Shown: piece after piece, positions 16,372 through 41,283 of the stretch
Position numbering within the stretch: the first letter of the stretch is position 1
Layout of the letters: each line of letters begins with the position of its first letter
Translations under genes and position numbers: made by a program
Notes under the pieces: model-generated
What the model was told of the DNA's origin: nothing
The model's input: the letters and a program-made list of their open reading frames with translations, nothing else
Databases searched by the model: none
Assembly: GCF_004114935.1 (NCBI RefSeq)
Contig: NZ_CP022221.1
Coordinates: 930,001-994,000, forward strand
From: Bradyrhizobium zhanjiangense
Lineage (GTDB): Bacteria > Pseudomonadota > Alphaproteobacteria > Rhizobiales > Xanthobacteraceae
DNA length: 64,000 bases
Direction of reading: 5' to 3'

Positions 16372-16448
16372 TACCGGAAAGCCGGAGATACGGAATGGCG
16401 TGTCTGGCGGCTTCGTGCCTTTCCGTTTCTCCTGATCGTCCATTTGCG

Positions 16449-16543
16449 GCGCGGCCCTTGAGAGGAAGAGGGCCGCGCTGCGCTTCGTGACGGGTTGGAG
16501 GACCAAAGAGAGTCTTTGGACCGCCCGTCGCGGAGTATCACCT
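16449..16543 (+). promoter_or_regulatory. Structured 5' leader of the ParB-like gene
   Basis: A perfect 10-bp stem GCGCGGCCCT (16449-16458) / AGGGCCGCGC (16469-16478) encloses the purine loop TGAGAGGAAG. It is followed by TGACGGGTTGGAG (16488-16500), identical to the 13-mer in the DUF932 leader. The element ends 43 nt before the ATG, almost the same spacing as in the DUF932 copy. Confidence 0.5.
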
Positions 16544-18685: not shown

Positions 18686-18692
18686 CTCGAGC

Positions 18693-18720
18693 ACGCGGGA
18701 CGGCTTCCGCCGTCCCGCGT
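18693..18720 (+). terminator. Terminator-like hairpin after the ParB-like gene
   Basis: A perfect 12-bp stem ACGCGGGACGGC / GCCGTCCCGCGT with a TTCC loop begins 8 nt after the ParB-like stop. It is followed by CTCTTC rather than a pure T run, so termination may be partial. The position and stability fit a rho-independent terminator. Confidence 0.6.
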
Positions 18721-18786
18721 CTCTTCACTGTCCCTCCCCCAAAGTCCGGCCCGTGCCGGGCGTTTTATATTATTATGGAGGCTCTC

Positions 18787-19200
18787 GTGCCCCTCTTTAC
18801 CATCGAGACTACCTATCGTCTGCCGATCCATCGGCAGCGAACTTACGAAGCCGAAACGCTAGACCAAGCCTGCGATCTCGCGATCACCGACGAGGGCTGG
18901 GACGACAGCAAGCTGGACGTTGAAACGTCCGGCGATACCTATGTCACTGGTGCCTGGGAAGGCCGCGACGCCGCCTATATCGGCCGGCCCCTGTCGTTTC
19001 CCTCACGTTTTGACGAGCAGGTCCAGCGCAAGGCCGATCATTTCGAGGTGCTGCTCGGTCTGCTCAAGGTACTCACCCACGCTCCGGAGGGAGGCTCAGC
19101 GGATGTCAAGCTTTGGCGCCGGCGGGCGGACGCCGCCATCGCGAAGGCCGAGACCATTCTCGCGCGCGAAAACGATCCGATCGAGGGAGCTGCGTCATGA
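18787..19200 (+). CDS. Conserved element-associated hypothetical protein
   Basis: A 137-residue protein starting at GTG 18787, chosen because GGAG (18777-18780) lies 6 nt upstream; an ATG at 18775 overlaps that site and is less likely. The N-terminal part, PLFTIETTYRLP with TYEAETLDQACDLA, looks like a small alpha/beta domain. The C-terminus is helical and charged. I know of no function. It lies between the ParB-like and helicase genes, where integrative elements of this kind usually carry such a gene, and overlaps the next tiny frame by 4 nt. Confidence 0.65.
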   Translation: MPLFTIETTYRLPIHRQRTYEAETLDQACDLAITDEGWDDSKLDVETSGDTYVTGAWEGRDAAYIGRPLSFPSRFDEQVQRKADHFEVLLGLLKVLTHAPEGGSADVKLWRRRADAAIAKAETILARENDPIEGAAS

Positions 19201-19277
19201 GCCAATACATCGTCACCGTCGTCGAGCACGATGCAAGCTACCTCGCAGAAGCGGCCGCCGAGGCTGACGACGGCTAA
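19197..19277 (+). CDS. Possible 26-residue small protein
   Basis: A very short frame beginning at ATGA (19197-19200), overlapping the stop of the previous gene. It encodes an acidic peptide starting MSQYIVTVVEHDASYLAEAA. The coupled ATGA junction and GC-rich third positions support real translation, but the size leaves much doubt. It may instead be the remnant of a longer gene. No function can be proposed. Confidence 0.35.
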   Translation: MSQYIVTVVEHDASYLAEAAAEADDG

Positions 19278-19377
19278 GGTTGGCTTCTTGGCAGTTCGGA
19301 TACTGACGAACGCTCTGTGCGCGGCGCGCCGCCATCCGGTGGGGCGCCGTTTCTCATGTCGGGCACCGCCTTGATGC

Positions 19378-19473
19378 TGAGAGGGAGAGGGCGGCCGGAA
19401 CGGGTTTGAGCCGGCGCGGTCAGAGAGAGCGCCGATCGGCTCGCCCGTTCCCGCTCTCCTTAAGGCTCCCCTC
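19378..19473 (+). promoter_or_regulatory. 5' leader of the helicase-methyltransferase gene
   Basis: It has the purine-rich stretch GAGAGGGAGAGGGCGGCCGG followed by AACGGGTTTGAG (19399-19410), a variant of the ACGGGTTGGAG element seen before the DUF932 and ParB-like genes. Downstream, GAGCCGGCGCGGT and CGCCGATCGGCTCG can pair imperfectly. The ATG follows about 63 nt after the motif. Confidence 0.4.
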
Positions 19474-23805: not shown

Positions 23806-24872
23806 TGGCCCGCGATAACGCTTCCGAACTGGCCCGCCGTCTCGCGCGTGACGCGGAGGCGGTGTGCCGCCATTACCTGTCCAACGGGCGGCGCCAGGGC
23901 CGCTACTGGATGGTGGGCGACGTCCGTAATACGCCGGGCCGGTCGATGTTCGTCCGGCTCAGCGGACCGGAATCCGGTCCTGGCGCCGCCGGGCACTGGC
24001 GAGATGCCGCCTCGGCTGAACATGGCGATCTCCTCGACGTGATCCGTGAGAGCTGTGGTTTCACCAACTTTCGCGATGTCGCCAAGGAGGCCCGACGCTT
24101 TCTGAATCTGTCGCGTCCAGAACTGGACGTAGAGCTAAATCGGCCCCCGTCACGAAAATCGCCCGTGCCCCTCGGATCGCCGGAGGCGGCGCGGCGACTC
24201 TTCGGCATGTCTCAGTCGATCGCGGGCACACTCGTAGAAGCGTATCTCCGCAATCGCGGCATTACGGCTTTGCACGAAACCGGCTGTCTGCGTTTTCACC
24301 CACGTTGCTACTACCGGCCCGATGACCACAGCCCGACCGAGACCTGGCCGGCGATGATCGCCGCCGTCACCGATCTGAACGGCCATCTGACCGGCGCGCA
24401 TCGCACCTGGCTTGATCCCGACGGCTTCGGTGAGACGACGCTCGGCAAAGCGCGGATCGACACGCCGAAACGGGCGATGGGCGACCTGCTTGGTCACGCC
24501 GTTCGATTTGGCGTCGCTGGCGAAGTCATGGCGGCCGGCGAGGGCATCGAGACGATGCTGTCGCTCCGCAGCGTCCTGCCGGCCATGCCGATGGTCGCGG
24601 CCCTCTCAGCGGCGCATCTCTCCGCCATCCTCTTCCCGGACACGCTCCGCCGGCTCTACATCGCTCGCGACGACGATCCTGCAGGTAGCGGCGCCATGGC
24701 GACCTTGATCGATCGGGCGCAGGAGGCCGGGATCGAAGCAATCGTGATCTCGCCACGGCTCGGCGACTTCAACGAGGATCTTCGCCTGCTCGGATTTGAC
24801 GCCCTTCGGGCCGCGAGCCGCGTGCAGATCGCGGTGCAGGACGTCGCGCGCTTTATGGAGCTGGCGGCATAG
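23805..24872 (+). CDS. Toprim domain-containing protein (DUF7146-type primase-like)
   Basis: A 355-residue protein. The N-terminal region (WRDAASAEHGDLLDVI) resembles the zinc-free primase-like domain of mobile-element Toprim proteins. The middle GDLLGHAVRFG and VMAAGEGIETMLSL give the Toprim glutamate. LYIARDDDPAG supplies the DxD-type metal site, and SPRLGDFNEDLR follows. It probably supports DNA replication or transfer of the element as a primase-type enzyme. The ATG overlaps the helicase stop, so the two are translationally coupled. No signal peptide is present, and its length is ordinary for the family. Confidence 0.85.
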   Translation: MARDNASELARRLARDAEAVCRHYLSNGRRQGRYWMVGDVRNTPGRSMFVRLSGPESGPGAAGHWRDAASAEHGDLLDVIRESCGFTNFRDVAKEARRFLNLSRPELDVELNRPPSRKSPVPLGSPEAARRLFGMSQSIAGTLVEAYLRNRGITALHETGCLRFHPRCYYRPDDHSPTETWPAMIAAVTDLNGHLTGAHRTWLDPDGFGETTLGKARIDTPKRAMGDLLGHAVRFGVAGEVMAAGEGIETMLSLRSVLPAMPMVAALSAAHLSAILFPDTLRRLYIARDDDPAGSGAMATLIDRAQEAGIEAIVISPRLGDFNEDLRLLGFDALRAASRVQIAVQDVARFMELAA

Positions 24873-25010
24873 CCGGAACGGGGAGGGGTGACGCGGCCGC
24901 TTCGTTACCGCGAGGCCGGTGGCCATGCTTCCCTCGGCGCCGGAGAGGACCGCCCCACGGCCTTCTGAGAGGGCGATCGGGCGGCAAGCGGCCCGGACCG
25001 GCAACCTCGT

Positions 25011-25196
25011 GGGCCGACTATTTTCCGTCGGCGGCAGAGCCGCCTTTACATCGCGAGGCAAAATAGTCGGCCCCCTTCGGTCCTCCGCTCCGCTTCGGCC
25101 CTTCGCTTCGCTGCGGGTGCAAGTCCGTTCCGCCTGCCGCCGTCGTCGCCATGAAGGCCGCGATGGGCGCGGTCGATCCCGGCGAGGAAAGCCGCA
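25011..25196 (+). promoter_or_regulatory. Long structured leader of the DUF2493 gene (copy A)
   Basis: A 186-nt leader. A perfect 14-bp inverted repeat, GGGCCGACTATTTT (25011-25024) and its complement (25060-25073), encloses an inner hairpin GGCGG-CAGAG-CCGCC (25030-25044) and the box CGCGAGGCAA (25052-25061), which partly overlaps the right arm. A second conserved block lies at 25147-25172. The leader before the DUF736 stub (41507-41687) has the same outer stem, inner stem, CGCGAGGCAA box and 26-nt block in the same order and nearly the same length. Together they suggest a structured regulatory RNA or shared operator. Confidence 0.55.
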
Positions 25197-26126
25197 ATGA
25201 CCACCGACCACGACAACGATTTCGAGCCGCACCACAGCTCATCCCCGACCGACCAGATCCTCCAGGAACTGCAGCTCTATGGCTACCGTGCCTTCCAGGA
25301 CGAGCCTGATCCGAGGCCGCTCCCCGAAGGTCACATCCTCGCCGGCAGCGTCGCCGACATCTTCGAGGCCTTGGTGGTGGCGCTGTCCGACACCCGTCTC
25401 GAGCCCGACCTCGAAGACCTGCTCTGGTCGACGGTGAACGTCTTCCATCGTGCCATCGACAGGATCGAGCGAGAGCTCGACGACAACGAGCTGGCGCAGC
25501 AGCGCTCACAGCGGGAGCAGGACGGCAGCGAGGTCAAATCCGTCGAGCTGGAGCGACTGACGGCGGAAGGGCAGACGCTGATCGAGCGACGAGGCGCCTT
25601 CGAGCTGATGCGCGACCAGGCCGCCGACGAATTCGAACGCCACACCCGTACCGCATGGCGGCCTCGCAACGGGTCGAAGGTCAATCACCACAATCTGACC
25701 TCCGCGATGATTGACAGCCGCGATTTCTTGGCCGCGAAGAAGCGAGCCGACAATCAGGTGCTCATGCCGCCCGGCCCCAAAGTCGCGCTGACCGGCGGTC
25801 TCGAATTCAACGATCACCGGCTAGTCTGGGCCAAGCTTGATCAGGTTCACGCGAAGCACCCGGACATGGTGCTGTTGCACGGCGGATCGCCCAAGGGGGC
25901 CGAGCTGATCGCCGCCAAATGGGCCGACAACCGCAAGGTGCCGCAGATTGCCTTCAAGCCCGACTGGACGAAGCATGCTAAAGCGGCTCCGTTCAAGCGC
26001 AACGATGCAATGCTGGAGACGCTACCGATCGGCGTGATGCACTTCCCCGGCACGGGAATCCAGGACAATCTCGCCGACAAGGCAAAGAAGCTCGGCATCC
26101 CGGTCTGGAGGTTCGGCGGCGCGTGA
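25197..26126 (+). CDS. DUF2493 (YspA/SLOG-like) domain protein
   Basis: A 309-residue protein. The first ~190 residues are acidic and helical (SSSPTDQILQELQLYGYRAF). The C-terminal ~110 residues carry the DUF2493 cpYpsA-related Rossmann fold with VALTGGLEFNDHRLVW, VLLHGGSPKGAELIAAKWA and the final AKKLGIPVWRF. SLOG-related domains bind nucleotides or related ligands; the exact ligand here is unknown. The gene is standard cargo of the element backbone and ends the intact plus-strand block. ATG 25197 follows AGGAAA after the long leader. Immediately downstream the element becomes fragmentary. Confidence 0.85.
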   Translation: MTTDHDNDFEPHHSSSPTDQILQELQLYGYRAFQDEPDPRPLPEGHILAGSVADIFEALVVALSDTRLEPDLEDLLWSTVNVFHRAIDRIERELDDNELAQQRSQREQDGSEVKSVELERLTAEGQTLIERRGAFELMRDQAADEFERHTRTAWRPRNGSKVNHHNLTSAMIDSRDFLAAKKRADNQVLMPPGPKVALTGGLEFNDHRLVWAKLDQVHAKHPDMVLLHGGSPKGAELIAAKWADNRKVPQIAFKPDWTKHAKAAPFKRNDAMLETLPIGVMHFPGTGIQDNLADKAKKLGIPVWRFGGA

Positions 26127-30100: not shown

Positions 30101-30965
30101 GCAATCCAACGTCGCTGGCCAGATGAAGCGGCCACGGTCCAGCCGCTTGGCGTACAGCGATAGCCCGACTCCGTCGGCTGGCTTTCCACGTGGGCACAAA
30201 AGGGGATCTCTTAGGTTGCCACCATTGTTAGTGCGGCGATTTGCGATGAGAAGCCCACACCCGCTGCCTCCAATGCGGCGGACCACTACGCGGCACTAAA
30301 TGGACACGATATGCTCAGGATGGACGGCTTGGTGCGAGCTTCACACGAAGAGTTGGCTTGAACTCCAGGCCGCGCTGGCCAAACTGAACATTTCACATTC
30401 CGATCACATTTCGATCATTCTCATCATCGGTCATGGCGACCGTCCACGTGCGTGCGAGGCATGAAGCGCCCGTTGGAGCGAAGGGCGTCAATGCCGTCAG
30501 GATTGCAAGGCTCCGACGTGGTCTGACACTACCTGATCTGGTAGCTGCTCAAGCCGCCTCGTCGGTGGTTGAGTAAGGCGATGATGGACGAAGTAGACAA
30601 AACCGAAACTGAACGACGAAGTTGTGGTCACCTCGTGCAGATTAGGAGGATGCAGAACCGCCTGCTCGAGGCGATCTCCATCTGACCGAACGTCCTCAGG
30701 CTATCTGCAGGGGTAGGATGTTTACGCGTGGAGACGCACTGAATGACCGAGCGGGATACGCACTCATCCTTGGCCGGCTGCCGACGGCTTGGCAACTCCA
30801 TCATCAGGCCGGGCATTCCGCACCAATGCGTGCTCATCGGAGAGCGGGTCCGCCGTGCAGGCCGAAGTGCAGGTCCCTGCTGAGCGGCTATGCGTCTTGG
30901 ATTCCCCAGCCGATCAGTCAGTGCCTCTGTGTCGATATTTGTTAGGATAAAGTCGAGAAGCAAAA
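30101..30965. other. Intergenic stretch upstream of the monooxygenase operon
   Basis: No gene with family resemblance is visible in these ~860 bases; the several short frames lack consistent codon bias. The pmoC promoter must lie toward the right end. A weak purine run, GGATAAAGTCGAGAAG, precedes the pmoC ATG. I did not find a convincing sigma-54 or sigma-70 promoter by eye. Confidence 0.4.
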
Positions 30966-31859
30966 ATGTCTGGCGATGCGTTACCTCGCAGGGCGAATGT
31001 CACGGTCATCAAGACCTTTGATATTGATTATGGATTGTTCGCGTTTGCGATGGTCGCGCTGACGATTCTGTACATCAGCGCGCGTCTGTATCAGCAGGCT
31101 TTTGGTTTCTCCATGGGGCTCGATGCGAACTCGCCGGAATTTGACCGATACTGGATGACGCTCTTCAGAATCGAGTTGCCGGTTCTATACGGCGCGGGCG
31201 TGCTCTGCTGGTCGTATCTCTTCCTGACGCGTGACAGGAGCATTGAGACCGTCACGCCCGAGACCGAGTTGCGCAGGTACTTCTATCTGGCCATGTGGCT
31301 CGTCGTGTACAGCTTCTGCATCTTCTGGACGGGCAGCTTCTTCGCCGATGGAGATGGCGTCTGGCATCAGACAACCCTGAGGGACACGCCGCTCACCCCC
31401 AGTCACATCATTCTGTTCTATGCGACCATCCCGATCTATCTCTTCTTTGGGGTCGGCAGCTTTGTCTACGCGATGACCCGGATCCCGGCCTTCTGCAGGG
31501 GGGTCTCGCTTATGCATGTGATTGCTGTAGTGGGGCCTTTCCTCATATTGCCGAATCTCGGTTTCAACGAATGGGGACATGCTTACTGGCTGACTGAGGA
31601 AATCTTCTCGCATCCGCTGCATTGGGGTTTCGTCGTTCTTGGATGGTGTGCACTCGCGTTGGCGGGCGTTTTGATGCAGATCGTCGAACGGTTGAGAGAA
31701 CTCATACCACTCGTGTTCAAGCAGGATGCTGCGGGAAGCCCGACGGACGCGAACCCGTTTCGCGACGCGTCGAAAAAGTGCGGTCCGGAAGCGCAGCGAC
31801 AACGATACAAGCCAACGACCGTTTCTGGACGGCGATCTATCTCCGGGAAGAGTAAGTGA
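30966..31859 (+). CDS. pmoC: Copper membrane monooxygenase subunit C (PmoC/AmoC family)
   Basis: A 297-residue membrane protein and the first gene of a C-A-B operon. The metal-binding residues of the family are all present. D130, H134 and H147 lie in GDGVWHQTTLRDTPLTPSH with the family spacing (+4, +17). N201, H205 and H219 in the NEWGHAYW region match the second proposed copper site (+4, +18). About six hydrophobic helices are visible. The enzyme inserts oxygen into small substrates such as methane, ammonia or short hydrocarbons; the substrate cannot be told from this gene. The C-terminal ~45 residues are a polar tail. It overlaps pmoA by 4 nt (GTGA). Confidence 0.92.
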   Translation: MSGDALPRRANVTVIKTFDIDYGLFAFAMVALTILYISARLYQQAFGFSMGLDANSPEFDRYWMTLFRIELPVLYGAGVLCWSYLFLTRDRSIETVTPETELRRYFYLAMWLVVYSFCIFWTGSFFADGDGVWHQTTLRDTPLTPSHIILFYATIPIYLFFGVGSFVYAMTRIPAFCRGVSLMHVIAVVGPFLILPNLGFNEWGHAYWLTEEIFSHPLHWGFVVLGWCALALAGVLMQIVERLRELIPLVFKQDAAGSPTDANPFRDASKKCGPEAQRQRYKPTTVSGRRSISGKSK

Positions 31860-32737
31860 ACCCCAGCGGCGAGGGAAGAGTGACCTCAACGGCCGACATC
31901 GATGCAGCGGCGAGTCCGAGAGAGAATACCCGCTTCAAGGATAAGAAGGATGAGACGGTCATTTCTGTCTCTGGTCTAACGCCCAGTGCAGCCAGATACT
32001 CTCGCCTGTTCGACGTCCTCGTCGTGGCGGCTGTGGTGACTATCTTTGCGGGAGCAATCCATCTGCATGTTATGCTCACGGTCGGCGATTGGGACATGTA
32101 TGTCGACTGGAAAGACCGGCAGTATTGGCCCCTGGTCATGCCTGTCTCCATGATCATGTTTCCTGCTGCCCTGCAGGCGATCTTCTGGGTCAACTTTCGT
32201 TTGCCGATCGGTGCGACGGTTGGCGCAACGGTGTTGCTCATTGCCACCTGGATCGGTCGTTACGCGAATTGGTGGATATGGACAGGTTTTCCCTTCACGG
32301 AAGGCGTGCCGTCACAGGCGCTCGCGGGGGCATTGTTGATGGATATGACTTTAATCGTCCTTCGCAATAGCCTGTTCACATCCATCATCGGCGGCTTTGC
32401 GTTCGGTTTCGTATTTTGGCCATCGAACTATTCCGCATTGGCTCCGTTCTATCTCCCTGTCGAGCACCAGGGAATGGTCGCATCGTTGGCCGACATGATC
32501 GGTTACACATTTCCGCGTTCGAACATGCCAGAGTATCTGCGTATCATTGAGCGCGGCACCCTCCGCACTTTCGGTAGCTCGGTGAGTTGGGTATCGGCGG
32601 CATTCGCGGGCTTCATCTGCATATTCATGCACCAGCTTTGGTGGCGGCTTGGACTTTTTGCGTCCCAGGCAACGTTCCTCAAGAACAGCGATGTCGTCAA
32701 ATCCTTCATGGGTATAAAAAGCAGCGTCGCGTCCTAA
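31856..32737 (+). CDS. pmoA: Copper membrane monooxygenase subunit A (PmoA/AmoA family)
   Basis: A 293-residue membrane protein starting at GTG 31856 with GGAAGAG upstream. Family landmarks are GDWDMYVDWKDRQYW (77-91), MFPAALQ, WIGRYANWWIWTGFPF, PVEHQGMVASLADMIGY and MPEYLRIIERGTLRTFG. Compared with the 247-residue methanotroph protein there is a ~30-residue N-terminal extension. The usual GDWDFW, target of the common survey primer, is GDWDMY here. Together with the gene order this marks an outlying member of the family. The product is an integral inner-membrane subunit of the trimeric complex with PmoB and PmoC. Substrate is unknown. Confidence 0.92.
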   Translation: MNPSGEGRVTSTADIDAAASPRENTRFKDKKDETVISVSGLTPSAARYSRLFDVLVVAAVVTIFAGAIHLHVMLTVGDWDMYVDWKDRQYWPLVMPVSMIMFPAALQAIFWVNFRLPIGATVGATVLLIATWIGRYANWWIWTGFPFTEGVPSQALAGALLMDMTLIVLRNSLFTSIIGGFAFGFVFWPSNYSALAPFYLPVEHQGMVASLADMIGYTFPRSNMPEYLRIIERGTLRTFGSSVSWVSAAFAGFICIFMHQLWWRLGLFASQATFLKNSDVVKSFMGIKSSVAS

Positions 32738-32741
32738 GGAC

Positions 32742-34007
32742 ATGAGCACGGGGACTATAGGCATGCTGCTGAAGCTTATCAAATTCGCTGCCGTTTGCGT
32801 CGCATTCATCGCCGGCGTGTCTCATGCGGCGGCTCATGGCGAACGCGCTCAGGAGCCATACCTGAGGACCAGAACAGTGCAGTTCTACGATGTTCATTTC
32901 TCCAAAACTGACGTGAAGGTGAACGAACGTTTCGAACTGACGGGAAAATTCAGGTTGATGCAGGACTGGCCGGATGCAGTGACCCCGCCGGACATCGTTT
33001 TCCTATCGAGCATATCGCCGGGGCCGACCATTGCCAGGGTCGAAACATACCTCAACGGGGAGCCAGCGAGGCAGTCTTTCGCGGGGCTGGAACTTGGCCG
33101 AGACTATGAGTTTCGAATGGTTCTTGAGGGACGCACACCGGGCAGTAGCCACATTCATCCCTCGATCTCGATCAAGGGCTCTGGTCCGCTGGTCGGACCG
33201 GGGCAATGGGTAAACATCTCGGGTGAGGCGCATTCGTTCGCATTTCCGATCAAGACGATGACAGGTCTGCAGATCGAGGACTTGCAGACGTTCGGGCTGG
33301 CTCATGCGGTCGGATGGCATTTGGCTTGGCTGGCTGTGGCTGCGGCTTGGTTGTCGTTCTGGTTGGCTCGACCGCTGATTCTACCTCGATGGCTTGTCCT
33401 GCAGAAGGGGCGGGAGGATTTGTTGATTTCGTTGAGAGACACTGGAGCTGGGATCATTGTGGCGGCGATTGTTCTCGTCATGGTCTTCGGTGGCTATGTC
33501 CGGGCGAGCGCGGAATATCCATACAATGTGCCCCTCCAGAGCGGCTTGAACAGGGTCGCGCCGCTTCCGGCAAGCCCTGCTTACGTAGAAATCAAGGTCA
33601 TATCGGCCACCTATGACGTGCCAGGCCGTTCGATGAGGTTGGCGACCCAGATAACCAACAAAGGGTCAGAACCTCTCTCGATTGGCGAGCTTACGACCGC
33701 AAACATTCGTTTCCTCAATCAGAGCCTCCCAGTGGCAATGGCCGATGTCGATCCGTCCTACCCAAGAGACCTCATCGCACGCACGGGGCTTAAGCTCAGC
33801 AGTGATACCCCGATCAATCCCGGTGAAACGAAAGAGGTGCGCGTTGAGGCAACGGACGCCGTGTGGGAATTGGAGCGACTTGTCAGCTTCCTCACCGACG
33901 TGGACTCCAAGTTCGGCGGGTTGTTGCTGCTCTATGCCCCCAATGGGGAACGCGTCATAGCAGAGATGGGCGGACCAATCGTGCCCGTATTCACCGAACT
34001 CAAGTAG
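32742..34007 (+). CDS. pmoB: Copper membrane monooxygenase subunit B (PmoB/AmoB family)
   Basis: A 421-residue subunit with a signal peptide ending near HAAA-HGERAQ. H32 becomes the N-terminal copper ligand, and H137 and H139 in SSHIHPSIS complete the CuB site; numbering is nearly the same as in the methanotroph protein. The bis-His residue found in gammaproteobacterial enzymes is Gln47 here (TVQFYD). Two membrane helices lie near 190-210 and 230-250, separating two cupredoxin-like periplasmic domains. ATG 32742 lies close to an AAGGA; ATG 32763 is an alternative start. It follows pmoA by 4 nt. Ligand conservation argues for an active enzyme. Confidence 0.92.
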   Translation: MSTGTIGMLLKLIKFAAVCVAFIAGVSHAAAHGERAQEPYLRTRTVQFYDVHFSKTDVKVNERFELTGKFRLMQDWPDAVTPPDIVFLSSISPGPTIARVETYLNGEPARQSFAGLELGRDYEFRMVLEGRTPGSSHIHPSISIKGSGPLVGPGQWVNISGEAHSFAFPIKTMTGLQIEDLQTFGLAHAVGWHLAWLAVAAAWLSFWLARPLILPRWLVLQKGREDLLISLRDTGAGIIVAAIVLVMVFGGYVRASAEYPYNVPLQSGLNRVAPLPASPAYVEIKVISATYDVPGRSMRLATQITNKGSEPLSIGELTTANIRFLNQSLPVAMADVDPSYPRDLIARTGLKLSSDTPINPGETKEVRVEATDAVWELERLVSFLTDVDSKFGGLLLLYAPNGERVIAEMGGPIVPVFTELK

Positions 34008-34022
34008 GGTTTGGGTGTGTGA

Positions 34023-34652
34023 ATGTTGCGAAGACGCCAGGCGCGAACGGCTGCGAGCCGAAGAGGGGCGTTCCGGACCGCGCGGGTGATGGCACTGGTC
34101 GCTCACATTATTCCTGCCGTCGTCCGCGAAGGTCATGCGCACGGAGCGGTGTCCATGGAAGCTGACCAATGCAAGCTGAAAGTGGACAGCTATTTCATGC
34201 ATTTTACTGGCTATCAGCCGCAGAGCTCGAGAGCCGAATTTTGTGAGGACATACCGGAGGTCGGGCGAACAATCATTGTTCTCGATTTCGTCGACCAGTC
34301 CCTTCGAGACATCCCGGTCAGCGTGAATCTGGCTCGAGATGATGGCGCCCGAACGGGGGACACGATGAACACGCCATCCAGCATCCTCTACATTCCACCG
34401 AAGAAGTATCCGAACGGAACGATCAAGATCGACGTCAATTTCGAGCAAGCCGGCAGATATATCGGGATGGTGGCGATCGAGAATGGCGAGCGAAACGTGG
34501 CGAAATTTCCGTTCGACGTGGGACGAGGCTGGAGTCTGATACGCCTTTTGGCCTGGTGTCTGGTCCTCGTATCAGCCGCCATCGGAACGTTTCTATGGGC
34601 CTTGCGACGAAGCGCGATAGCACAAAATCTACCTGCGGCGAGCGAGAAGTGA
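34023..34652 (+). CDS. PmoD/AmoD-like membrane-anchored periplasmic copper protein
   Basis: A 209-residue protein: a basic N-terminus and hydrophobic stretch, a beta-rich periplasmic domain, and one C-terminal helix (LIRLLAWCLVLVSAAIGTFL). Two cysteines, in DQCKLKVD and AEFCEDIPE, flank YFMHFTGYQPQSS. That pattern and the cupredoxin-plus-anchor layout match AmoD/PmoD proteins, which can form a dinuclear copper site. It sits 15 nt after pmoB, in the position where pmoD is often found. I keep the symbol blank because the call is from remembered family features. The role is probably copper delivery or electron transfer to the monooxygenase. Confidence 0.65.
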   Translation: MLRRRQARTAASRRGAFRTARVMALVAHIIPAVVREGHAHGAVSMEADQCKLKVDSYFMHFTGYQPQSSRAEFCEDIPEVGRTIIVLDFVDQSLRDIPVSVNLARDDGARTGDTMNTPSSILYIPPKKYPNGTIKIDVNFEQAGRYIGMVAIENGERNVAKFPFDVGRGWSLIRLLAWCLVLVSAAIGTFLWALRRSAIAQNLPAASEK

Positions 34653-34666: not shown

Positions 34667-35026
34667 ATGAAAAGGTTCGTGATTGTGCTGATGGCTGCGC
34701 TGATCGGAACGCCAAGTGCAGTCCTCGCTCATGCGCATCTCATGCGCTCGACGCCGCAAGATGGCAGTCGAATTTCAGCGCCGATCAAGGCAATCGTCCT
34801 CTCCTTCACCGAAGCGCTCGAGCCGCTGCTCATCAATGTCACCCTCTTTCGCGATGATAAAGCCGTGTCAGGGCTTTCGCAGCCCTTGCTAGCCGACAAT
34901 GGACGAACCGTGACTATTTCGCTGCCCCATCTTTCTGCCGGGCTCTATACCGTCAGTTGGAACGTTGTCTCCATTGATGGGCATCGCACGGAAGGCAAGT
35001 TTAAGTTCGTCTACTGGGGACCTTGA
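34667..35026 (+). CDS. copC: Periplasmic copper-binding protein CopC
   Basis: A 119-residue protein with a clear signal peptide ending in VLAHAHL, leaving an N-terminal His as a copper ligand. The conserved SIDGHRTEG near the end supplies the Asp and His ligands of the Cu(II) site. A single beta-barrel CopC domain fills the mature chain. ATG 34667 is chosen because the signal peptide begins there; the frame is open upstream within the previous gene. It overlaps the CopD fusion at TGATG. Placed behind the monooxygenase genes, it probably captures periplasmic copper for the enzyme. Confidence 0.9.
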   Translation: MKRFVIVLMAALIGTPSAVLAHAHLMRSTPQDGSRISAPIKAIVLSFTEALEPLLINVTLFRDDKAVSGLSQPLLADNGRTVTISLPHLSAGLYTVSWNVVSIDGHRTEGKFKFVYWGP

Positions 35027-36960
35027 TGGAAACGGTCCTCTCACTTGCGCGAGGGACTGCTTTTGCCTCCACGGCAGCTTTCGGCGGGGTTTGCTCGGGT
35101 CTGGCGCTGTGGCGCGATGGACTTGAAAGCCGCACCCGGTCGCTTTTCACGACGATCGCTTCCACCGCAGCATTCGCAGGATTCGCCCTTGGTGTCCTGT
35201 TCTTAACGGTTCGGACCGTTGCGCTTCTTGGTAAGCCGCCCTCGGCTATCAACTTCAGCGACGTGCTCTTTATCATTCTTGGCACCCGGTTCGGGAGAGC
35301 TCAGCTTGCAGCGCTTGGATGTGTGCTCGTTGGTGCCGCGAGCTTGCGACTTCTGCACAAGCCAGGTCTTGCCGCGATTGTCAGCGTATTGTCGCTGCTG
35401 ATGGGATTGTTCTCGAGTCACTCGGCGGCTGGCGGGACTATTGCAGACCTCGTGATCAATATAGCTCACGTTGTTGCAGCAGCGCTCTGGTTCGGAGGAC
35501 TGTCAGCCCTCGTTGTCGCAATGGCTCACCAGTCAGTGGCGAGGCCTGAAGGGCCGTCGAGGCGGCTCAGCGGCTTTTCGAACATTGCGCTGCTATTGAT
35601 GTTGCTCGTGGTCGCGACCGGCGTAACTCTAGCGATTGAAAACGTTGGGACTTGGCCGGGTTTGGTGGCGACTGAGTATGGCTGGCTCTTAATGGGGAAG
35701 CTCGCCTGTGTGGGCATAGCCCTGATCTGTGCGGCGTTTGTCCGGCTGAAGCTCTTGCCGTTGCTAAAGTCCGAGAAATCAGTTCCGCCGCTCGCGATGG
35801 TCTTGAAGACCGAGCTAGCCTTCGCATGTCTGGTCATACTACTTGCAGGGTGCCTGTCTCAGGCGATTCCATCGAGACATGTCGAGATAATCTGGCCGCT
35901 TTCGTTTCGTCTGGATCCAGCGGTTGCGTGGCGGACGATTCCGGGAAGTCGCCTTCTGGCCATTGGCGGCTGCGTTGCGCTGTCTGTGGGGAGTATGGCC
36001 GCCTTTGTGCTCGGCCGCGCGGGAATGTGGCGATGGGCGACGATTATTGCTGCCGCTGGAGTTGGCGTCGGAGGTGCTTTCGCGCTGCATGCGTTGTCAG
36101 TCCCGGCCTATCCATCGACCTACGCGACGGTTCCAGTGCCGTATGACGCGGAAGCGATCGGCCAGGGATACGATGTATTCCGCGCAAATTGCGTAGCATG
36201 CCACGGCCAAAGGGGCAGAGGCGATGGGCCGCTGGCAAATGATTTGAAGCCGCCGCCTGCCGATCTCACCGCGCCGCACACGACCGATCATACGATGGGA
36301 GACATGTACTGGTGGGTGAGCTATGGCTTCCCATCCTCGGCGATGCCGGGATTTGCCGACCGTCTCTCGGACATGGACCGTTGGCGGGTAGTCGAGTATG
36401 TGATGGCTCTATCACTTGGCTATGAAGCAAGAGTTCTGGGCCCCGAAATCGCGACGGGGCAGCCGTGGCTGCACGCGATCGACTTTCCGACCTGCAGCGG
36501 CGTTGCTCCGGCAGACAACTCGAAAGAGGGGAGCGATGGGTCCGCAAAGCTTGTGTCGATCTTCCGGGATGGCGCTCGAATGCAGCACCTGGATCAGTTG
36601 ATGCAACATGAGCGCGACATCGCACGAGCAGGTGGAGTGATCGTCGCGGTGCTGCCATCTCCTTCCGAAAAGATCGCGTCTGCCGGCGTTCTGAGAAATG
36701 TCTGTGTCGTGTTCGACCTGGATCATCGTATTGCCGCTACATGGAATCTCTATCGGCGCACGATGAGTAACCCTGGCTTCCATGACGACGATTTGCCGCC
36801 ATCGATCATCGAGTTTCTCATCGATAGATTCGGGTTCGTGCGCGCGCGCTGGCGTTCGGATGAGACGGATGGGTTGGCCTCGCCCTCCCAATTGGTCGAA
36901 GCCATGACGCAACTCCGAGCTGAACCAGAGATAAACAAGAGAGGCGTTCATGATCATTAG
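35026..36960 (+). CDS. CopD-cytochrome c-redoxin-like tripartite fusion
   Basis: A 644-residue protein. Residues 1-350 are a multi-helix CopD-type copper import domain, with INIAHVVAAALWFGGLS near 145-160 as the family core. Residues ~375-465 form a class I cytochrome c with CVACH at 389-393 and SAMPGF giving Met440 as axial ligand. Residues ~470-644 look like a redoxin/thioredoxin-fold domain (KLVSIFRDG, RNVCVVFDLDHRIAATW) without a CxxC. The start ATG 35026 overlaps copC. The fusion may couple copper import to redox control or to electron supply for the monooxygenase. Domain borders are estimates. Confidence 0.8.
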   Translation: METVLSLARGTAFASTAAFGGVCSGLALWRDGLESRTRSLFTTIASTAAFAGFALGVLFLTVRTVALLGKPPSAINFSDVLFIILGTRFGRAQLAALGCVLVGAASLRLLHKPGLAAIVSVLSLLMGLFSSHSAAGGTIADLVINIAHVVAAALWFGGLSALVVAMAHQSVARPEGPSRRLSGFSNIALLLMLLVVATGVTLAIENVGTWPGLVATEYGWLLMGKLACVGIALICAAFVRLKLLPLLKSEKSVPPLAMVLKTELAFACLVILLAGCLSQAIPSRHVEIIWPLSFRLDPAVAWRTIPGSRLLAIGGCVALSVGSMAAFVLGRAGMWRWATIIAAAGVGVGGAFALHALSVPAYPSTYATVPVPYDAEAIGQGYDVFRANCVACHGQRGRGDGPLANDLKPPPADLTAPHTTDHTMGDMYWWVSYGFPSSAMPGFADRLSDMDRWRVVEYVMALSLGYEARVLGPEIATGQPWLHAIDFPTCSGVAPADNSKEGSDGSAKLVSIFRDGARMQHLDQLMQHERDIARAGGVIVAVLPSPSEKIASAGVLRNVCVVFDLDHRIAATWNLYRRTMSNPGFHDDDLPPSIIEFLIDRFGFVRARWRSDETDGLASPSQLVEAMTQLRAEPEINKRGVHDH

Positions 36961-37795
36961 TGTGCAAGTAGATTATCATTTCGCATGCCGTCTGGCTCGT
37001 TTTTTGCTTCGGTGACTGAAGCTCGCGGTAAGCGTGACACTCACTCGGGACACCCCGTCGTTCACTTGTGACGGGAGCGCTCTGGGGCCGGCAAGATCTC
37101 AGGGCATGACAGGCCATGACAAAGGACCCGACAATCAACCTCCGCGCAGTCTGTGGTCCTGTTGGCATTTGGGTGGCAGCAAGGCATTCGAACCATCAGC
37201 TGATGCGCGCCACATCCGAAGGGGCCGGCTGGCGTCATACGGCGGATTGCAGGGCGACCAATCTCGGCGGTCTTCAGGAGCCCAGTCTGTCTACAAATCA
37301 GAACCGCAGATGGACTTGCGCTGATGATTCGTGCGCCAGCGTGCTGTCTCCCCGACCGTGCTTACAGACGTCTCGTGGCTACTCCATCCGCAAGCGTCCA
37401 TCGGCGATCCCTAAACGGTCATATTGTCTGACGACCGAGGCTTTGAGGCGAGTGACAATGGTCGGATACAGCGATCACCTCTGCTCATGTGATCTGTCGG
37501 TCCGCAAGCAGGCGGAGAATGCCCAATTCGCAGAGAGCAGCTCCTGCATCGATAACCGGCCCCTCGGCTGTTTTGGTTGGCCCGGACGGCGCCCGTTGCA
37601 TAGGAAGACTTCTCATTTCGAACGTCAGAAGAACAAAGTCGTAAGATGGTGACGAAAGAGGACCCTCAACTCCGTTGCGGAAATGTCCGATGCAGCGACC
37701 GGAAAGATCCAAAAAGGACAATTGCGACACAGGTTCCTGATCGCCTTCTCCGAACATGGGGTGGCAAGCGCAAACGCGAACAGAGGAGGCCCATG
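36961..37795. other. Gene-poor gap inside the copper locus
   Basis: About 830 bases separate the CopD fusion from the PCuAC-like gene. The largest frame (178 codons at 37116-37652) has no family resemblance, irregular codon use and many rare Cys/Ser runs, so I leave it out. The gap probably contains the promoter of the PCuAC-like gene; a good AGGAGG site is at 37784-37789. Confidence 0.4.
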
Positions 37796-38323
37796 ATGCG
37801 TTGGAAACCTGCGACGTTGATGGCAAGTGCAACGGCGTTGCTTCCGTTGATCCGTGTTGTTGCCATCCTGGCTTTGGTCAGCAGTGCCGCCGCCAGTCAT
37901 GAGTTGGAGAGCGGAGCACTCCTGATCCAACATCCTTGGGTCGCGGCCAAGGATATGACCCACGCCGCAACGACAGCCTACGTGGTTGAAATCCAGAACA
38001 GAGGCGCGAAGCCAGATCGGTTGCTCGGGGCATCACTTTCCGGCAAGAAAGGAATCTTGCAGAAAGCCGTTGCAGGCGCTCGGCCAGCGAGGTTTGCCGC
38101 GCAAGATCAGGGCTTCCCAATCGAGCCCGGTGGTTTCGTTCGTCTTCAGCCCAATGGGGCGCGGATCCTGTTTGAGGGACTACACGGCGCACTTAAAGAG
38201 GGAGAGATGGTCAAAGGAACGCTGGAATTCGAGAAGGCCGGTACGATAGCGATCGACTTCATGATAGAGCCGGCGAGTCTGGCTGAAGAAGATGATAGGC
38301 CAATCCATCACCATCACGACTAA
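37796..38323 (+). CDS. PCuAC/DUF461-like periplasmic copper chaperone, ligand-depleted
   Basis: A 175-residue protein with a signal peptide ending near AAASHELESG, then a PCuAC-like beta domain (IQHPWVAA, TTAYVVEIQNRG, PIEPGGFVRLQPNG). The usual H-x-M ligands after LxPGG are replaced (ARILFEGL), so the classical Cu(I) site is incomplete. The C-terminus ends in HHHHD, a possible new metal site. ATG 37796 is favoured because it sits 6 nt from AGGAGG; ATG 37793 is also possible. Placed behind the monooxygenase locus in the same direction, it probably serves copper handling. Confidence 0.7.
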   Translation: MRWKPATLMASATALLPLIRVVAILALVSSAAASHELESGALLIQHPWVAAKDMTHAATTAYVVEIQNRGAKPDRLLGASLSGKKGILQKAVAGARPARFAAQDQGFPIEPGGFVRLQPNGARILFEGLHGALKEGEMVKGTLEFEKAGTIAIDFMIEPASLAEEDDRPIHHHHD

Positions 38324-38747: not shown

Positions 38748-38826
38748 GTAAGCGCTCAGCCCCTACCCTAGCTCCGGGATTGGATTAGATGTGCGAAGAA
38801 GCCTCCGGCTTGAACGGAGGTTTGGG

Positions 38827-39255
38827 ATGGGATTGGACGGCAAAAAAGACGCCCATTTGGACAGCTCAACAGTTGGGTCTGGAGCAGTCAGCCGGCTTGA
38901 AGTGCTTGAGGGACCGTCCGGGCGTCGTGTGCGTTCAGATGCCGAGTGGGCTCGGATCGTCGGCGAAAGTCTGCTGCCCGGCGCTCAGGTGGCGGAGGTA
39001 GCGCGCAAGCACGGAGCGACGCGCTGGCAAATTTACGATTGGCGACGACGCTTCCGACAGCGCGGCGAATTACCGTCGTGCGAGGCTCCGCAGCCGCCGT
39101 TCGCGCCGCTGGTCGTGGACGGGCCGTTAGAGGAGCGTCACGTTCCGGCAGTCAAGCTCGAGATTGCGATTGGCGACGTCGTCGTGCGGACGGACGCGGC
39201 GATAGATGGGGAGCAGCTGTCTCGATTGATCCGCGCGGTGCGGGCGTCACGATGA
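38827..39255 (+). CDS. tnpA: IS66 accessory protein TnpA (Orf1)
   Basis: A 142-residue IS66 Orf1. The helix-turn-helix part reads VAEVARKHGATRWQIYDWRR, typical of the DNA-binding accessory protein needed for transposition. ATG 38827 has GGAGG 6 nt upstream; a GTG at 38791 is in frame but less well placed. It overlaps tnpB by 4 nt (ATGA), as in other IS66 elements. Confidence 0.9.
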   Translation: MGLDGKKDAHLDSSTVGSGAVSRLEVLEGPSGRRVRSDAEWARIVGESLLPGAQVAEVARKHGATRWQIYDWRRRFRQRGELPSCEAPQPPFAPLVVDGPLEERHVPAVKLEIAIGDVVVRTDAAIDGEQLSRLIRAVRASR

Positions 39256-39605
39256 TTGTCCCCGGCTCCGAACTGAAGATTTACATCGCGACGCGGCCCG
39301 TCGACTTCCGCTGTGGGCACGATGGGCTTGCTGCGAAGGTGCAGGAGATGCTTGGTCTCGATCCGTTCAGCGGTGCAGCCTTCGTGTTCCGGTCGAAACG
39401 GGCGGACCGGATCAAGATTCTGGTGTGGGATCGAACGGGCCTGGTGCTGGTGCATAAACGCCTTGAGGGTTGCAAGTTCGTGTGGCCAAAGATTGCGGAC
39501 GGCGTGATGCGGATATCGCCGGCGATGTTCGCCGCGCTGTTTGAGGGCCTGGATTGGCGGTTGGTCCGCCCGGAGGAAGCGCGGCGTCCACAGATCGCTG
39601 GATAA
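39252..39605 (+). CDS. tnpB: IS66 accessory protein TnpB (Orf2)
   Basis: A 117-residue IS66 Orf2 with the diagnostic start KIYIATRPVDFRCGHDGLAA and the blocks FVFRSKRADRIKILVWD and KRLEGCKFVWP. It is an accessory protein of IS66 transposition whose exact role is unsettled. It is complete, overlaps tnpA by 4 nt and is followed after 68 nt by tnpC. Confidence 0.93.
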   Translation: MIVPGSELKIYIATRPVDFRCGHDGLAAKVQEMLGLDPFSGAAFVFRSKRADRIKILVWDRTGLVLVHKRLEGCKFVWPKIADGVMRISPAMFAALFEGLDWRLVRPEEARRPQIAG

Positions 39606-39673
39606 GTGCGGCAGAATGACTCTGTGCCGAGTTGGGCATGGCGCCGTCGGCGCAGATGTGCTCGACATGGCGC

Positions 39674-41263
39674 ATGAGCACCGCGACGCTTCGCGACGAG
39701 AATGAACGCCTGAAGGCGCTTTTAGCGCAAACGCAGGCAGCATTGAGCGAACATCAAGCGGCGCTGGCAACGTCGGAAGAAGCGCGGCGCCGGTTGGAGG
39801 TCATTCTCGGGGAACTACGCCGAGAGAAGTTCGGAGCGAAGTCCGAGAAGCTGCGGCCAGATCAATATCATTTGCCGCTCGAAGACGTGGAGATCGCGCA
39901 AGGCGTCCTGGACGCGGCACAAGAGAAGGCTGCGGCGGTCATCAGGGGCCGATCGCATGCTGGATCGGATCAGGACCGTCATCGCAATCGGGGCTGCTTG
40001 CCCGCCCATTTGCCGCAGGTGGAGCGGATCCTCGAGCCTGCGAGCACGTTCTGTCCGTGCGGTTGCGGCGCGATGACGAAGATCGGCGAGGACGTCAGCA
40101 AACGCCTTGACGTGATCCCGGCACAATGGCGCGTGCTGGTCACGCGTCGCCCGAAATACATCTGCCGCCGCTGCTCCGGCCCTGTCGTGCAGGCGCACGC
40201 ACCAGAGCATGTCGTGCCTGGTGGACTACCGACCGAAGCGGCGATTGCGCAGGTGATCGTCTCCAAGTTTGGCGACCATACGCCGTTTTACCGTCAGGCC
40301 GAGATCTATGCGCGCCAGGGGATTCGACTTGATCGGGCGACACTGGGCAACTGGTCCGGTCGCGCCTGCTTCCATCTGCAGCCCGTTGCCGACCGCATGC
40401 GCTGCCATCTGGCAGCGGCGGATCGCCTGTTCATGGATGAAACCGCGGCGCCGGTGCTCGATCCCGGGCGTGGTCAAACGAAGAAGGGTTACTTCTGGGC
40501 GATCGTCTCCGACGACCGCGGCCATAGCGGCCCAAGTCCGCCGATCGTGCTGTTCCGATATGCCCCCGGTCGCAGCGGCGCCTTCGCTGAGCAGTTCCTG
40601 GACGGCTTCACCGGACGCTTCCTGCAATGCGATGCCTACGACGGCTATGATCGGCTGATCGAAGTCGCTCGACCGCAAGGACCCTGGACGCTCGTACACT
40701 GCTGGAGCCATTTGCGCCGGCGCTTCGTCAAATTGGCCCGCAACAGTAAATCGCCGATCGCCGAGGCCGCCGTCCGGCAGATCGCACAGCTCTACGGCAT
40801 CGAAGCCATGGCACGCGGTTCATCGCCGGACATCAGGCTGGCCGCGCGCAAGGAACGCTCGCTGCCCCTCGTCGAGGCGTTGAAGCCGTGGTTCGAGAAA
40901 CAGCTGTCGATGATCTCCAGCGGCTCGACGCTCGCTGATGACATCCGCTACGCGCTCAATCATTGGCAGGGGCTGACGCGCTTCCTCGATGACGGGCGGC
41001 TCGAGCTCGACACCAATCCGGTTGAAAACGCGATCCGGCCGATCTGCTTGACCAGAAAAAACGCACTCTTCGCTGGTCATGAGGTCGGAGCCGAAAACTG
41101 GGCCTTGCTCGCATCCATCGTGGCGACCTGTAAGCTCAACGACGTCAACCCGGTCGCCTACATCGCCGAAACGCTCACGGCGATCATCGCCGGCCATCCC
41201 CAAAGCGAAATCGACGACTTAATGCCATGGCGATTCCGCAAAACGTCAAGCCAGCATCAATAG
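39674..41263 (+). CDS. tnpC: IS66 transposase TnpC (DDE)
   Basis: A 529-residue DDE transposase. The N-terminus is a leucine-rich coiled coil (DENERLKALLAQTQAALSEH). A zinc-binding segment, CPCGCGAM and CRRCSGPV, follows, then the catalytic domain with LFMDETAAPVLDPGRG, CDAYDGYDRL, HCWSHLRRRF and the final ELDTNPVENAIRP holding the last acidic residue. ATG 39674 (MSTATLRDE) is the family start; a longer start is possible at 39632. It ends 20 nt before the right inverted repeat tip. No frameshift is seen, so the element should be active. Confidence 0.93.
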   Translation: MSTATLRDENERLKALLAQTQAALSEHQAALATSEEARRRLEVILGELRREKFGAKSEKLRPDQYHLPLEDVEIAQGVLDAAQEKAAAVIRGRSHAGSDQDRHRNRGCLPAHLPQVERILEPASTFCPCGCGAMTKIGEDVSKRLDVIPAQWRVLVTRRPKYICRRCSGPVVQAHAPEHVVPGGLPTEAAIAQVIVSKFGDHTPFYRQAEIYARQGIRLDRATLGNWSGRACFHLQPVADRMRCHLAAADRLFMDETAAPVLDPGRGQTKKGYFWAIVSDDRGHSGPSPPIVLFRYAPGRSGAFAEQFLDGFTGRFLQCDAYDGYDRLIEVARPQGPWTLVHCWSHLRRRFVKLARNSKSPIAEAAVRQIAQLYGIEAMARGSSPDIRLAARKERSLPLVEALKPWFEKQLSMISSGSTLADDIRYALNHWQGLTRFLDDGRLELDTNPVENAIRPICLTRKNALFAGHEVGAENWALLASIVATCKLNDVNPVAYIAETLTAIIAGHPQSEIDDLMPWRFRKTSSQHQ

Positions 41264-41283
41264 GGTGGCGGCTAAGCGCTTAC

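What the first reader, a model, noticed from the sequence alone, without database searches (positions are those of the whole stretch)
30966..34007. Copper membrane monooxygenase operon (pmoCAB) outside a recognised methanotroph or nitrifier background
Seen in sequence: three adjacent genes with the PmoC, PmoA and PmoB landmarks, overlapping or 4 nt apart. The ligands I could place are kept: D130/H134/H147 and N201/H205/H219 in PmoC, H32/H137/H139 in PmoB. The flanking genes indicate a Bradyrhizobium-like host and an integrative-element setting. I recall only a handful of CuMMO loci in such bacteria, with unknown substrate. No methanol dehydrogenase or hydroxylamine oxidoreductase gene is in the window, so the pathway after oxidation must be elsewhere or the substrate is neither methane nor ammonia.
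Basis: partly seen in the sequence, partly recalled or inferred. Interest (0 to 1): 0.92.

Follow-up and report, generated by a model that had tools for sequence, protein, structure and literature searches.

The report
Mobile copper monooxygenase operon in Bradyrhizobium
A soil bacterium of the legume-nodulating genus Bradyrhizobium carries an intact, horizontally acquired gene set for the kind of copper enzyme that oxidises methane, ammonia or small hydrocarbons, together with its copper-supply genes; the enzyme type is known but its substrate here is not, and it may let plant symbionts consume trace gases.

Summary
Window 30966-36960 is a tight six-gene operon, xmoC-xmoA-xmoB-xmoD-copC-copD/cytochrome c, with a PCuAC gene downstream. 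Known Cu ligand positions are kept, and dN/dS of 0.12-0.15 in xmoCAB between species indicates a used enzyme. It sits on a putative 233-kb integrative conjugative element at tRNA-Arg(ACG) in a one-contig, nodA-bearing Bradyrhizobium genome. It is not a handful: 21 of 265 same-genus genomes have XmoA, and Bradyrhizobium XmoCAB falls in five places in the tree (one clade rejected, p-AU 3e-10). The window lineage is sister to Burkholderiales CuMMOs of unknown substrate, outside the methanotroph pMMO, Nitrosospira AMO and actinobacterial HMO rows. The HAO family was not found (control positive); XoxF, its cytochrome and RuBisCO are present, and XoxF-Calvin-cycle growth on methanol is published for other Bradyrhizobium. 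Best reading: a laterally acquired small-hydrocarbon monooxygenase (C2-C4 more likely than methane) feeding PQQ alcohol dehydrogenases. A CuMMO of unknown function in Bradyrhizobium is already in print (PMC6215863), so this is a new member of a known kind; substrate unproven.

The parts
30782..30965 (+). upstream region; conserved from 30782 in one (G146) and from about 30855 in two (G006, G222) of the more distant relatives; probable promoter region by inference
   Evidence: blastn, alignment; promoter scan of 30400-38900 found 3 sites, shuffles 3.8, none here
30966..31859 (+). xmoC, CuMMO subunit C with D130 H134 H147 N201 H205 H219; residues 259-297 are an extension not shared by four other species of the lineage
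31856..32737 (+). xmoA, CuMMO subunit A; the true start may be a few codons later, since two relatives have a stop at the fourth residue
32742..34007 (+). xmoB, CuMMO subunit B with H32 H137 H139
34023..34652 (+). xmoD, PmoD/AmoD homologue; motif C-x8-M-H instead of the CuA motif C-x7-M-x-H
   Evidence: 6cpd match E 4.8e-21; motif survey; motif definition PMC6189053 passages
34667..35026 (+). copC (ORF opens at 34556; start placed at the Met before a signal-peptide-like stretch, by inference)
   Evidence: PF04234 E 5.2e-20
35023..36960 (+). CopD-cytochrome c fusion with a C-terminal domain of predicted thioredoxin fold lacking CxxC
   Evidence: PF05425, PF13442, PF00034; alignment, AlphaFold mean pLDDT 71 and ResA/peroxiredoxin matches
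37793..38323 (+). PCuAC periplasmic copper chaperone gene (ORF opens at 37646; relatives have stops or a frame change before residue 44, so the start is placed at 37793), conserved with the operon in 5 of 5 compared contigs of its lineage
   Evidence: PF04314 E 5.7e-17
38748..41283 (+). IS66 insertion with 8-bp target duplication, not part of the operon; absent in B. sacchari and B. manausense
15175..26126 (+). element backbone genes: ParB-like, strawberry-notch helicase, DUF7146/Toprim, YAcAr

Best explanation
A horizontally acquired, intact copper membrane monooxygenase with its own copper-supply genes, carried on a putative 233-kb integrative conjugative element. CopC, CopD-cytochrome c, PCuAC and XmoD bring in and insert copper (inferred from homologues); XmoCAB then uses O2 and quinol or cytochrome electrons to hydroxylate a small gaseous hydrocarbon at the CuC/CuD site (inferred from family chemistry). 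Most likely physiological substrates are C2-C4 alkanes, with methane possible and ammonia unlikely; the alcohols go to lanthanide/PQQ alcohol dehydrogenases encoded elsewhere in the genome (XoxF and relatives), then to CO2 and the Calvin cycle or to central metabolism. Shown here: gene content, ligand residues, selection, phylogeny, island features, presence of XoxF-type and RuBisCO genes, no HAO-family hit. Inferred: substrate, electron source, copper delivery, expression.
For: Pfam and PDB matches with the metal ligand residues. dN/dS between species of the lineage, 9 pairs per gene with dS over 0.2 among six strains, coding parts only: xmoC 0.13-0.15, xmoA 0.12-0.15, xmoB 0.12-0.14, xmoD 0.27-0.39, copC 0.28-0.41, copD/cyt 0.26-0.29, PCuAC 0.17-0.22, no stops. 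xmoCAB-D order in the other Bradyrhizobium lineages, with copC and copD/cyt in the second lineage and in both bins. Tree: window lineage (100/100) sister to Burkholderiales CuMMOs (100/99), away from Methylocystis, Methyloglobulus and Crenothrix rows. HAO family absent in this genome, E 3.1e-157 in the Nitrosospira control. Five PQQ ADHs over cut-off, XoxF motif and XoxG-type cytochrome, RuBisCO. Island: tRNA-Arg at 925872-925948, 26-bp repeat at 925924 and 1159049, integrase beside it, Trb genes, GC 0.604 inside against 0.646 in the flanks held.
Against: No activity or expression data. The sister CuMMOs have unknown substrates and the neighbouring ORFs, listed without a profile search, gave no hint. 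That betaproteobacterial CuMMOs act on ethane/propane is recalled from Rochman et al. 2020, which is not held (only its title seen in reference lists), and a 2021 paper still lists Polaromonas and Rhodoferax CuMMOs among those of unknown function (PMC8630023, passage). XmoB and XmoC exceed NCBIfam ammonia-monooxygenase cut-offs. No Pfam alcohol dehydrogenase was seen among the 30 window ORFs scanned. The third lineage (SZCCT strains) showed no copC or copD/cyt in the 19.5 kb held. Between the closest strains the few changes are not skewed to silent ones (for example xmoC window-manausense 2 silent, 7 replacing). XmoD lacks the CuA methionine position.
Confidence: 0.55

Rival explanations
1. 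It is a methane monooxygenase: with XoxF, formaldehyde oxidation, formate dehydrogenase and the Calvin cycle, the host could grow on or co-oxidise methane.
For: XoxF-type gene, XoxG-type cytochrome and RuBisCO are in the genome; XoxF-CBB growth on methanol is shown for other Bradyrhizobium strains (PMC12628762, abstract and section 23 seen). An extended operon with PmoD, CopC, CopD and PCuAC occurs in Methylosinus trichosporium OB3b (PMC6189053 passages).
Against: Not among the methanotroph pMMO rows, identity to Methylocystis 40-45%. The same paper calls XoxF-CBB prevalent in the genus by genomics, while xmo is in 21 of 265, so the pathway does not exist for xmo. Formaldehyde and formate steps were not searched in this genome.
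Confidence: 0.2
2. It is an ethylene (alkene) monooxygenase useful in the rhizosphere or nodule, lowering plant ethylene or using it as carbon.
For: Haliea strains with CuMMOs grow on ethylene (PMC6215863 and PMC4678205 passages). All 17 genomes of the two main Bradyrhizobium lineages have strong nodA against 122 of the other 248 (Fisher p 1.2e-5); over all xmo genomes 17 of 21 against 122 of 244 (p 0.006).
Against: Relatedness of hosts was not controlled and the two-lineage comparison was chosen after seeing the data; in the window genome nodA is 1.86 Mb away. Epoxide-handling genes (EaCoMT) were not searched for. Four of 21 xmo genomes lack strong nodA.
Confidence: 0.12
3. It is an ammonia monooxygenase giving hydroxylamine for co-oxidation or signalling.
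For: XmoB and XmoC exceed NCBIfam AmoB and AmoC cut-offs, 542 against 336 and 369 against 319 bits; they also exceed the general methane/ammonia models.
Against: XmoA misses the AmoA cut-off, 283 against 290, and the general methane/ammonia model; no HAO-family hit, with a positive control; 38% XmoA identity to Nitrosospira.
Confidence: 0.07
4. Passenger genes on a mobile element with no present use.
For: Low GC, island setting, patchy distribution; no excess of silent changes between the three closest strains.
Against: Purifying selection on all seven genes and no stop in the coding parts between the more distant species; repeated acquisition.
Confidence: 0.06

Closest known systems
CuMMOs of unknown substrate in Burkholderiales (Comamonadaceae and Burkholderiales MAGs, L050-L053 and L088)
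   Same: Sister rows in the tree (100/99); identity for the two compared, L052 and L088: XmoA 64%, XmoC 72%, XmoB 59-64%; same run xmoCAB-D-copC-copD/cyt in L050-L053, L088 ends within xmoB
   Different: No island signs looked for; XmoD in L050-L053 keeps the CuA-type Met at +8
CuMMO of unknown function in Bradyrhizobium sp. ERR11 (named in PMC6215863, passage)
   Same: Same genus and enzyme family
   Different: Its sequence was not identified here, so which of the five Bradyrhizobium placements it belongs to is not known
Extended pmo operon of Methylosinus trichosporium OB3b (pmoCAB with pmoD, copC, copD, pCuAC; PMC6189053 passage)
   Same: Same gene set; copper supply to a CuMMO as likely purpose
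   Different: pMMO of a methanotroph; here CopD is fused to cytochrome c and XmoD lacks the CuA motif (whether OB3b CopD is fused was not checked)
Actinobacterial hydrocarbon monooxygenase (Mycolicibacterium chubuense NBB4, L133)
   Same: Three-subunit CuMMO on mobile DNA, tied to gaseous-alkane use in print (PMC9213486 passage)
   Different: XmoA 38%, XmoB 31% identity; separate branch; two small hypothetical genes, not PmoD/CopCD, annotated after it

Membership tests
Copper membrane monooxygenase (CuMMO) | three subunits C, A, B as adjacent genes with family profiles | tested here: met
Copper membrane monooxygenase (CuMMO) | CuB histidines in B and the Asp/His/His and Asn/His/His sets in C | tested here: met
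Copper membrane monooxygenase (CuMMO) | copper content and O2-dependent hydroxylation | not testable with these tools
   needs protein or cells
Methanotroph pMMO | falls in the methanotroph pMMO rows of the tree | tested here: not met
   74 rows; no row named as Verrucomicrobia or NC10 in the set
Methanotroph pMMO | methanol dehydrogenase in the genome | tested here: met
   said to be common in Bradyrhizobium anyway (PMC12628762)
Nitrifier AMO | hydroxylamine oxidoreductase family (PF13447) in the genome | tested here: not met
   positive control Nitrosospira
Nitrifier AMO | all three subunits over NCBIfam Amo cut-offs | tested here: not met
   B and C over, A under
Actinobacterial HMO/BMO | clusters with Mycolicibacterium, Mycobacterium and Rhodococcus rows | tested here: not met
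Betaproteobacterial alkane CuMMO (Rochman 2020, recalled) | growth on ethane or propane, not methane | not testable with these tools
   paper not held
PmoD/AmoD | sequence homology to PmoD | tested here: met
PmoD/AmoD | CuA motif Cx7MxHxnC | tested here: not met
   Phe at the Met position, Met one place later
Integrative conjugative element | tRNA site with flanking direct repeat and integrase | tested here: met
   26-bp repeat 925924 and 1159049; Arm-DNA-bind_3 over cut-off, but Phage_integrase under it, 20 against 27.1 bits
Integrative conjugative element | type IV secretion genes | tested here: met
   VirB8, CagX, TrbI, TrbL, TrbE-family, T2SSE ATPase over cut-off
Integrative conjugative element | relaxase | not tested
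   -
Integrative conjugative element | empty site in relatives | tested here: inconclusive

The most novel reading that the evidence does not exclude
Nodule-forming Bradyrhizobium have repeatedly picked up CuMMO operons on mobile islands because oxidising a plant- or soil-derived gas pays off in the root zone: ethylene, which restrains nodulation (recalled), or methane through XoxF and the Calvin cycle, which would make some legume symbionts facultative trace-gas oxidisers that fix both nitrogen and carbon.
Probability: 0.15. Interest if true: 0.9.

Novelty: new member of a known kind. Interest (0 to 1): 0.6.

Why it matters
CuMMOs run the oxidation of methane and ammonia, and their spread outside classic guilds is under-explored. 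Named Bradyrhizobium strains (by record title B. sacchari, B. manausense, B. altum, B. niftali, B. frederickii and others) carry at least three separate lineages of these operons, so the substrate question can be put to strains rather than bins. If they oxidise methane, short alkanes or ethylene, soil gas budgets and nodulation biology would both be affected, and automated annotation as 'ammonia monooxygenase' would be shown to mislead.

Tried and rejected
Contamination or misassembly: rejected, one 9.34-Mb contig with one XmoA copy, and near-identical operons in other Bradyrhizobium species. Vertical inheritance in the genus: rejected, one clade for 15 Bradyrhizobium rows costs 978 log units, p-AU 3.2e-10. 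Location in the nod region: not so for the window genome, nodA is 1.86 Mb away; in two of three other genomes of one or two contigs (G212, G196) an operon of the second lineage lies 150-180 kb from nodA, in the third (G199) 1.45 Mb. Promoter prediction: 3 found, 3.8 expected. Soluble diiron monooxygenase: no hit, but no control rang, so absence is not shown. Empty island site: not found. Same integrase beside xmo in other hosts: not seen; matches in 5 of 9 other genomes, at 57-61% identity in three, none near xmo. Substrate hints from ORFs around four Burkholderiales/Betaproteobacteria relatives: none noticed, no profile search made. dN/dS: the first run gave nonsense for xmoA because stop signs shifted the codon alignment; the second still counted spacer DNA past stops in xmoC and before the start of xmoA and PCuAC, found on checking; one search uses coding parts only and gives lower values.

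Rows dropped before counts: the first tree left out 5 of 84 rows lacking a subunit; the second left out 14 near-duplicates of 88 rows. For nodA, 24 of 163 hits were weak (E above 1e-7) and not counted as nodA. The genome-contig scan kept the best 80 of 232 relatives. G156 is a metagenome bin whose operon contig recurs almost identically in a 'Sulfotelmatobacter' bin (L074, L075), so its host is unsure; G251 is also a bin.
Full report
What is there. Three genes at 30966-34007 encode CuMMO subunits C, A and B. The run goes on without a real gap: xmoD (34023-34652), copC (about 34667-35026) and a copD-cytochrome c fusion (35023-36960); a PCuAC gene follows, ending at 38323. XmoD has no Pfam match but matches the PmoD crystal structure chain 6cpd at E 4.8e-21. 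The fusion protein ends in about 190 residues without a Pfam match that are predicted to have a thioredoxin fold (mean pLDDT 71; ResA and peroxiredoxins, best E 2e-6, TM about 0.4-0.6) and show no CxxC.

Is it intact. Solved pMMO and AMO chains align with all three subunits (10, 14 and 12 distinct PDB sequences for B, C and A). B H32, H137, H139 and C D130, H134, H147, N201, H205, H219 sit on the columns that I recall as Cu ligands, and are kept in 86-87 of 87 B rows and 83-84 of 84 C rows, the C exceptions being gaps. Over coding parts, between strains of the lineage with dS above 0.2 (9 pairs per gene among six strains), dN/dS is 0.12-0.15 for xmoA, B and C and 0.17-0.41 for the four copper genes, with no stop. 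That is purifying selection. Between the three closest strains the changes are few and not mainly silent (for example xmoB window-sacchari 15 silent, 12 replacing), so the last steps are not informative. XmoC in the window, B. sacchari and B. manausense has 39 extra residues where B. altum, B. oropedii and Arg816 have a stop and the cir1 match ends.

Host and setting. The window is bases 930001-994000 of a one-contig 9.34-Mb genome with one XmoA. A tRNA-Arg(ACG) gene lies at 925872-925948; a 26-bp repeat that holds its 3' end (925924) recurs at 1159049. GC is 0.604 between the repeats and 0.646 in the flanks held, with high-GC stretches inside at window 15-28 kb and near 1.00 and 1.03 Mb. Beside the second repeat is a tyrosine integrase-like gene (Arm-DNA-bind_3 over cut-off; the catalytic Phage_integrase profile under it). 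Within lie Trb/VirB conjugation genes, a replication initiator and ParA, and ParB-like, helicase and Toprim genes in the window. I read this as a 233-kb integrative conjugative element. An empty site was not found in 40 relatives, and a relaxase was not looked for.

The mobile unit. In five contigs of the window lineage (G006, G075, G096, G146, G222) the operon and PCuAC are conserved, at 97-98% DNA identity in B. manausense and B. sacchari and 78-84% in the other three, where no match over 400 bp adjoins them. In B. manausense the operon block abuts a block that in the window genome lies 179 kb away at the other end of the island.

Distribution. XmoA (PF02461) is in 21 of 265 same-genus genomes and, in a draw of 391 genomes of the family covering 47 genera, only in this genus (8 genomes). 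The 21 fall into five placements: 7 of the window lineage, 10 of a second lineage, 2 of a third (records titled B. diazoefficiens SZCCT0138 and B. manausense SZCCT0118), and two metagenome bins. XmoD follows in all five; copC and copD/cyt were not seen in the third lineage within the 19.5 kb held. The bin G156 is doubtful because nearly the same contig is filed under 'Sulfotelmatobacter'.

Phylogeny. Concatenated XmoCAB, 74 rows, IQ-TREE with profile mixture: the window lineage (100/100) is sister to Burkholderiales CuMMOs (100/99). Methylocystis, Methyloglobulus, Crenothrix, operons in the order A-B-C (pxm-type), Cycloclasticus, Nitrosospira (subunits A and B only) and actinobacterial HMO fall elsewhere. 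Holding 15 Bradyrhizobium rows together is rejected, p-AU 3.2e-10. Some record titles in that set ('Klebsiella', 'Bordetella') are bin labels that I do not trust. Haliea, Verrucomicrobia, NC10, comammox and archaeal CuMMOs were not put in, so 'all clades' has not been tested.

Function. Ammonia as a growth substrate is unlikely: the HAO family gave no hit in this genome and E 3.1e-157 in a Nitrosospira control. NCBIfam would still name B and C as ammonia monooxygenase, while A misses both the AmoA model and the general methane/ammonia model. For an alcohol product the genome has five PQQ methanol/ethanol-family dehydrogenases over cut-off. One carries Asp-Tyr-Asp, the lanthanide XoxF signature (signature recalled), beside a methanol-metabolism cytochrome, TIGR03874. 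RuBisCO is present. A 2025 paper reports XoxF, glutathione-linked oxidation, formate dehydrogenase and Calvin-cycle growth on methanol in two Bradyrhizobium strains and calls it prevalent by genomics (PMC12628762; abstract and section 23 seen); the words methane and monooxygenase do not begin any word in it. So methane oxidation could be completed if the unsearched formaldehyde and formate steps are present. The phylogenetic neighbours, and the recalled finding that betaproteobacterial CuMMOs act on ethane and propane (Rochman 2020, not held, title seen in reference lists), make C2-C4 alkanes my first choice; against this, PMC8630023 (passage) lists Polaromonas and Rhodoferax CuMMOs as of unknown function.

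XmoD. PmoD forms its CuA site only with the motif Cx7MxHxnC (PMC6189053, passages). The window-lineage copies read C-x7-F-M-H, as do others among the 71 homologues (13 of 71 in all); the second lineage and L050-L053 read C-x7-M-M-H. The window lineage lacks the tested methionine position but has one beside it. I predict copper binding without a normal CuA site.

Nodulation link. Strong nodA hits occur in 17 of 21 xmo genomes and 122 of 244 others (p 0.006), and in 17 of 17 of the two main lineages. Relatedness is uncontrolled, so this is a lead. In the window genome nodA lies 1.86 Mb from xmo; in G212 and G196 the second-lineage operon is 150-180 kb from nodA, in G199 1.45 Mb.

What is in print. 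Searches pairing Bradyrhizobium with 'copper membrane monooxygenase', 'pmoCAB', 'CuMMO', particulate methane monooxygenase or Skermanella, and xmoA, xmoCAB, pmoA-like or hydrocarbon monooxygenase, and rhizobia with methane monooxygenase, CuMMO or symbiosis island, were read as listings; two searches listed 40 of 169 and 15 of 496. The one paper on the point that I found is PMC6215863 (passages): a CuMMO of unknown function in Bradyrhizobium sp. ERR11. PMC11931723 (passages) treats its Bradyrhizobium isolates as non-methanotrophs. I found no report of the island, the five placements or the nodA co-occurrence in those listings; the library lacks most subscription papers.

Verdict. A real, intact and probably used CuMMO operon, extended and island-borne; a new member of a known kind whose substrate is open and testable in named strains.

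Noticed in passing
window 38748-41283: IS66 element with 8-bp target duplication CCCCCTTC; B. sacchari (G096) has the empty site with one copy of the 8 bp and B. manausense lacks the element, so it is a recent insertion.
   Followed up: yes
window 1218-14737 (minus strand): Run of SbcC/SbcD-like, HerA-like helicase, SIR2-like, AbiEii/AbiEi and SMC-like genes: looks like a defence cluster near one end of the island.
   Followed up: no
window 48507-56716: ABC transporter/M24/M20 peptidase block found at 88% identity about 22 kb from the second-lineage xmo operon in G212: two distant xmo operons share island neighbourhood genes.
   Followed up: partly
G000:C1:1148617-1156594: Lysine/ornithine N-oxygenase with adjoining ORFs near the island integrase, perhaps a siderophore or metallophore cluster; in B. 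manausense this block abuts the xmo block.
   Followed up: partly
G000:C1:1380001-1390000: A 10-kb bin with apparent GC 0.325 is an artefact: half of it reads N in the held sequence.
   Followed up: yes
L074 and L075: Nearly the same 8.65-kb xmo contig is binned as Bradyrhizobium in one record and as Candidatus Sulfotelmatobacter in another; at least one bin is wrong.
   Followed up: partly
window 31740-31859: The last 39 codons of xmoC read through what is stop and spacer in B. altum, B. oropedii and Arg816: a recent loss of the stop that created the 4-nt overlap with xmoA.
   Followed up: partly
window 30966-34007: NCBIfam names XmoB and XmoC as bacterial ammonia monooxygenase over cut-off, although no HAO-family gene was found in the genome: a likely source of wrong 'nitrifier' labels.
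   Followed up: yes
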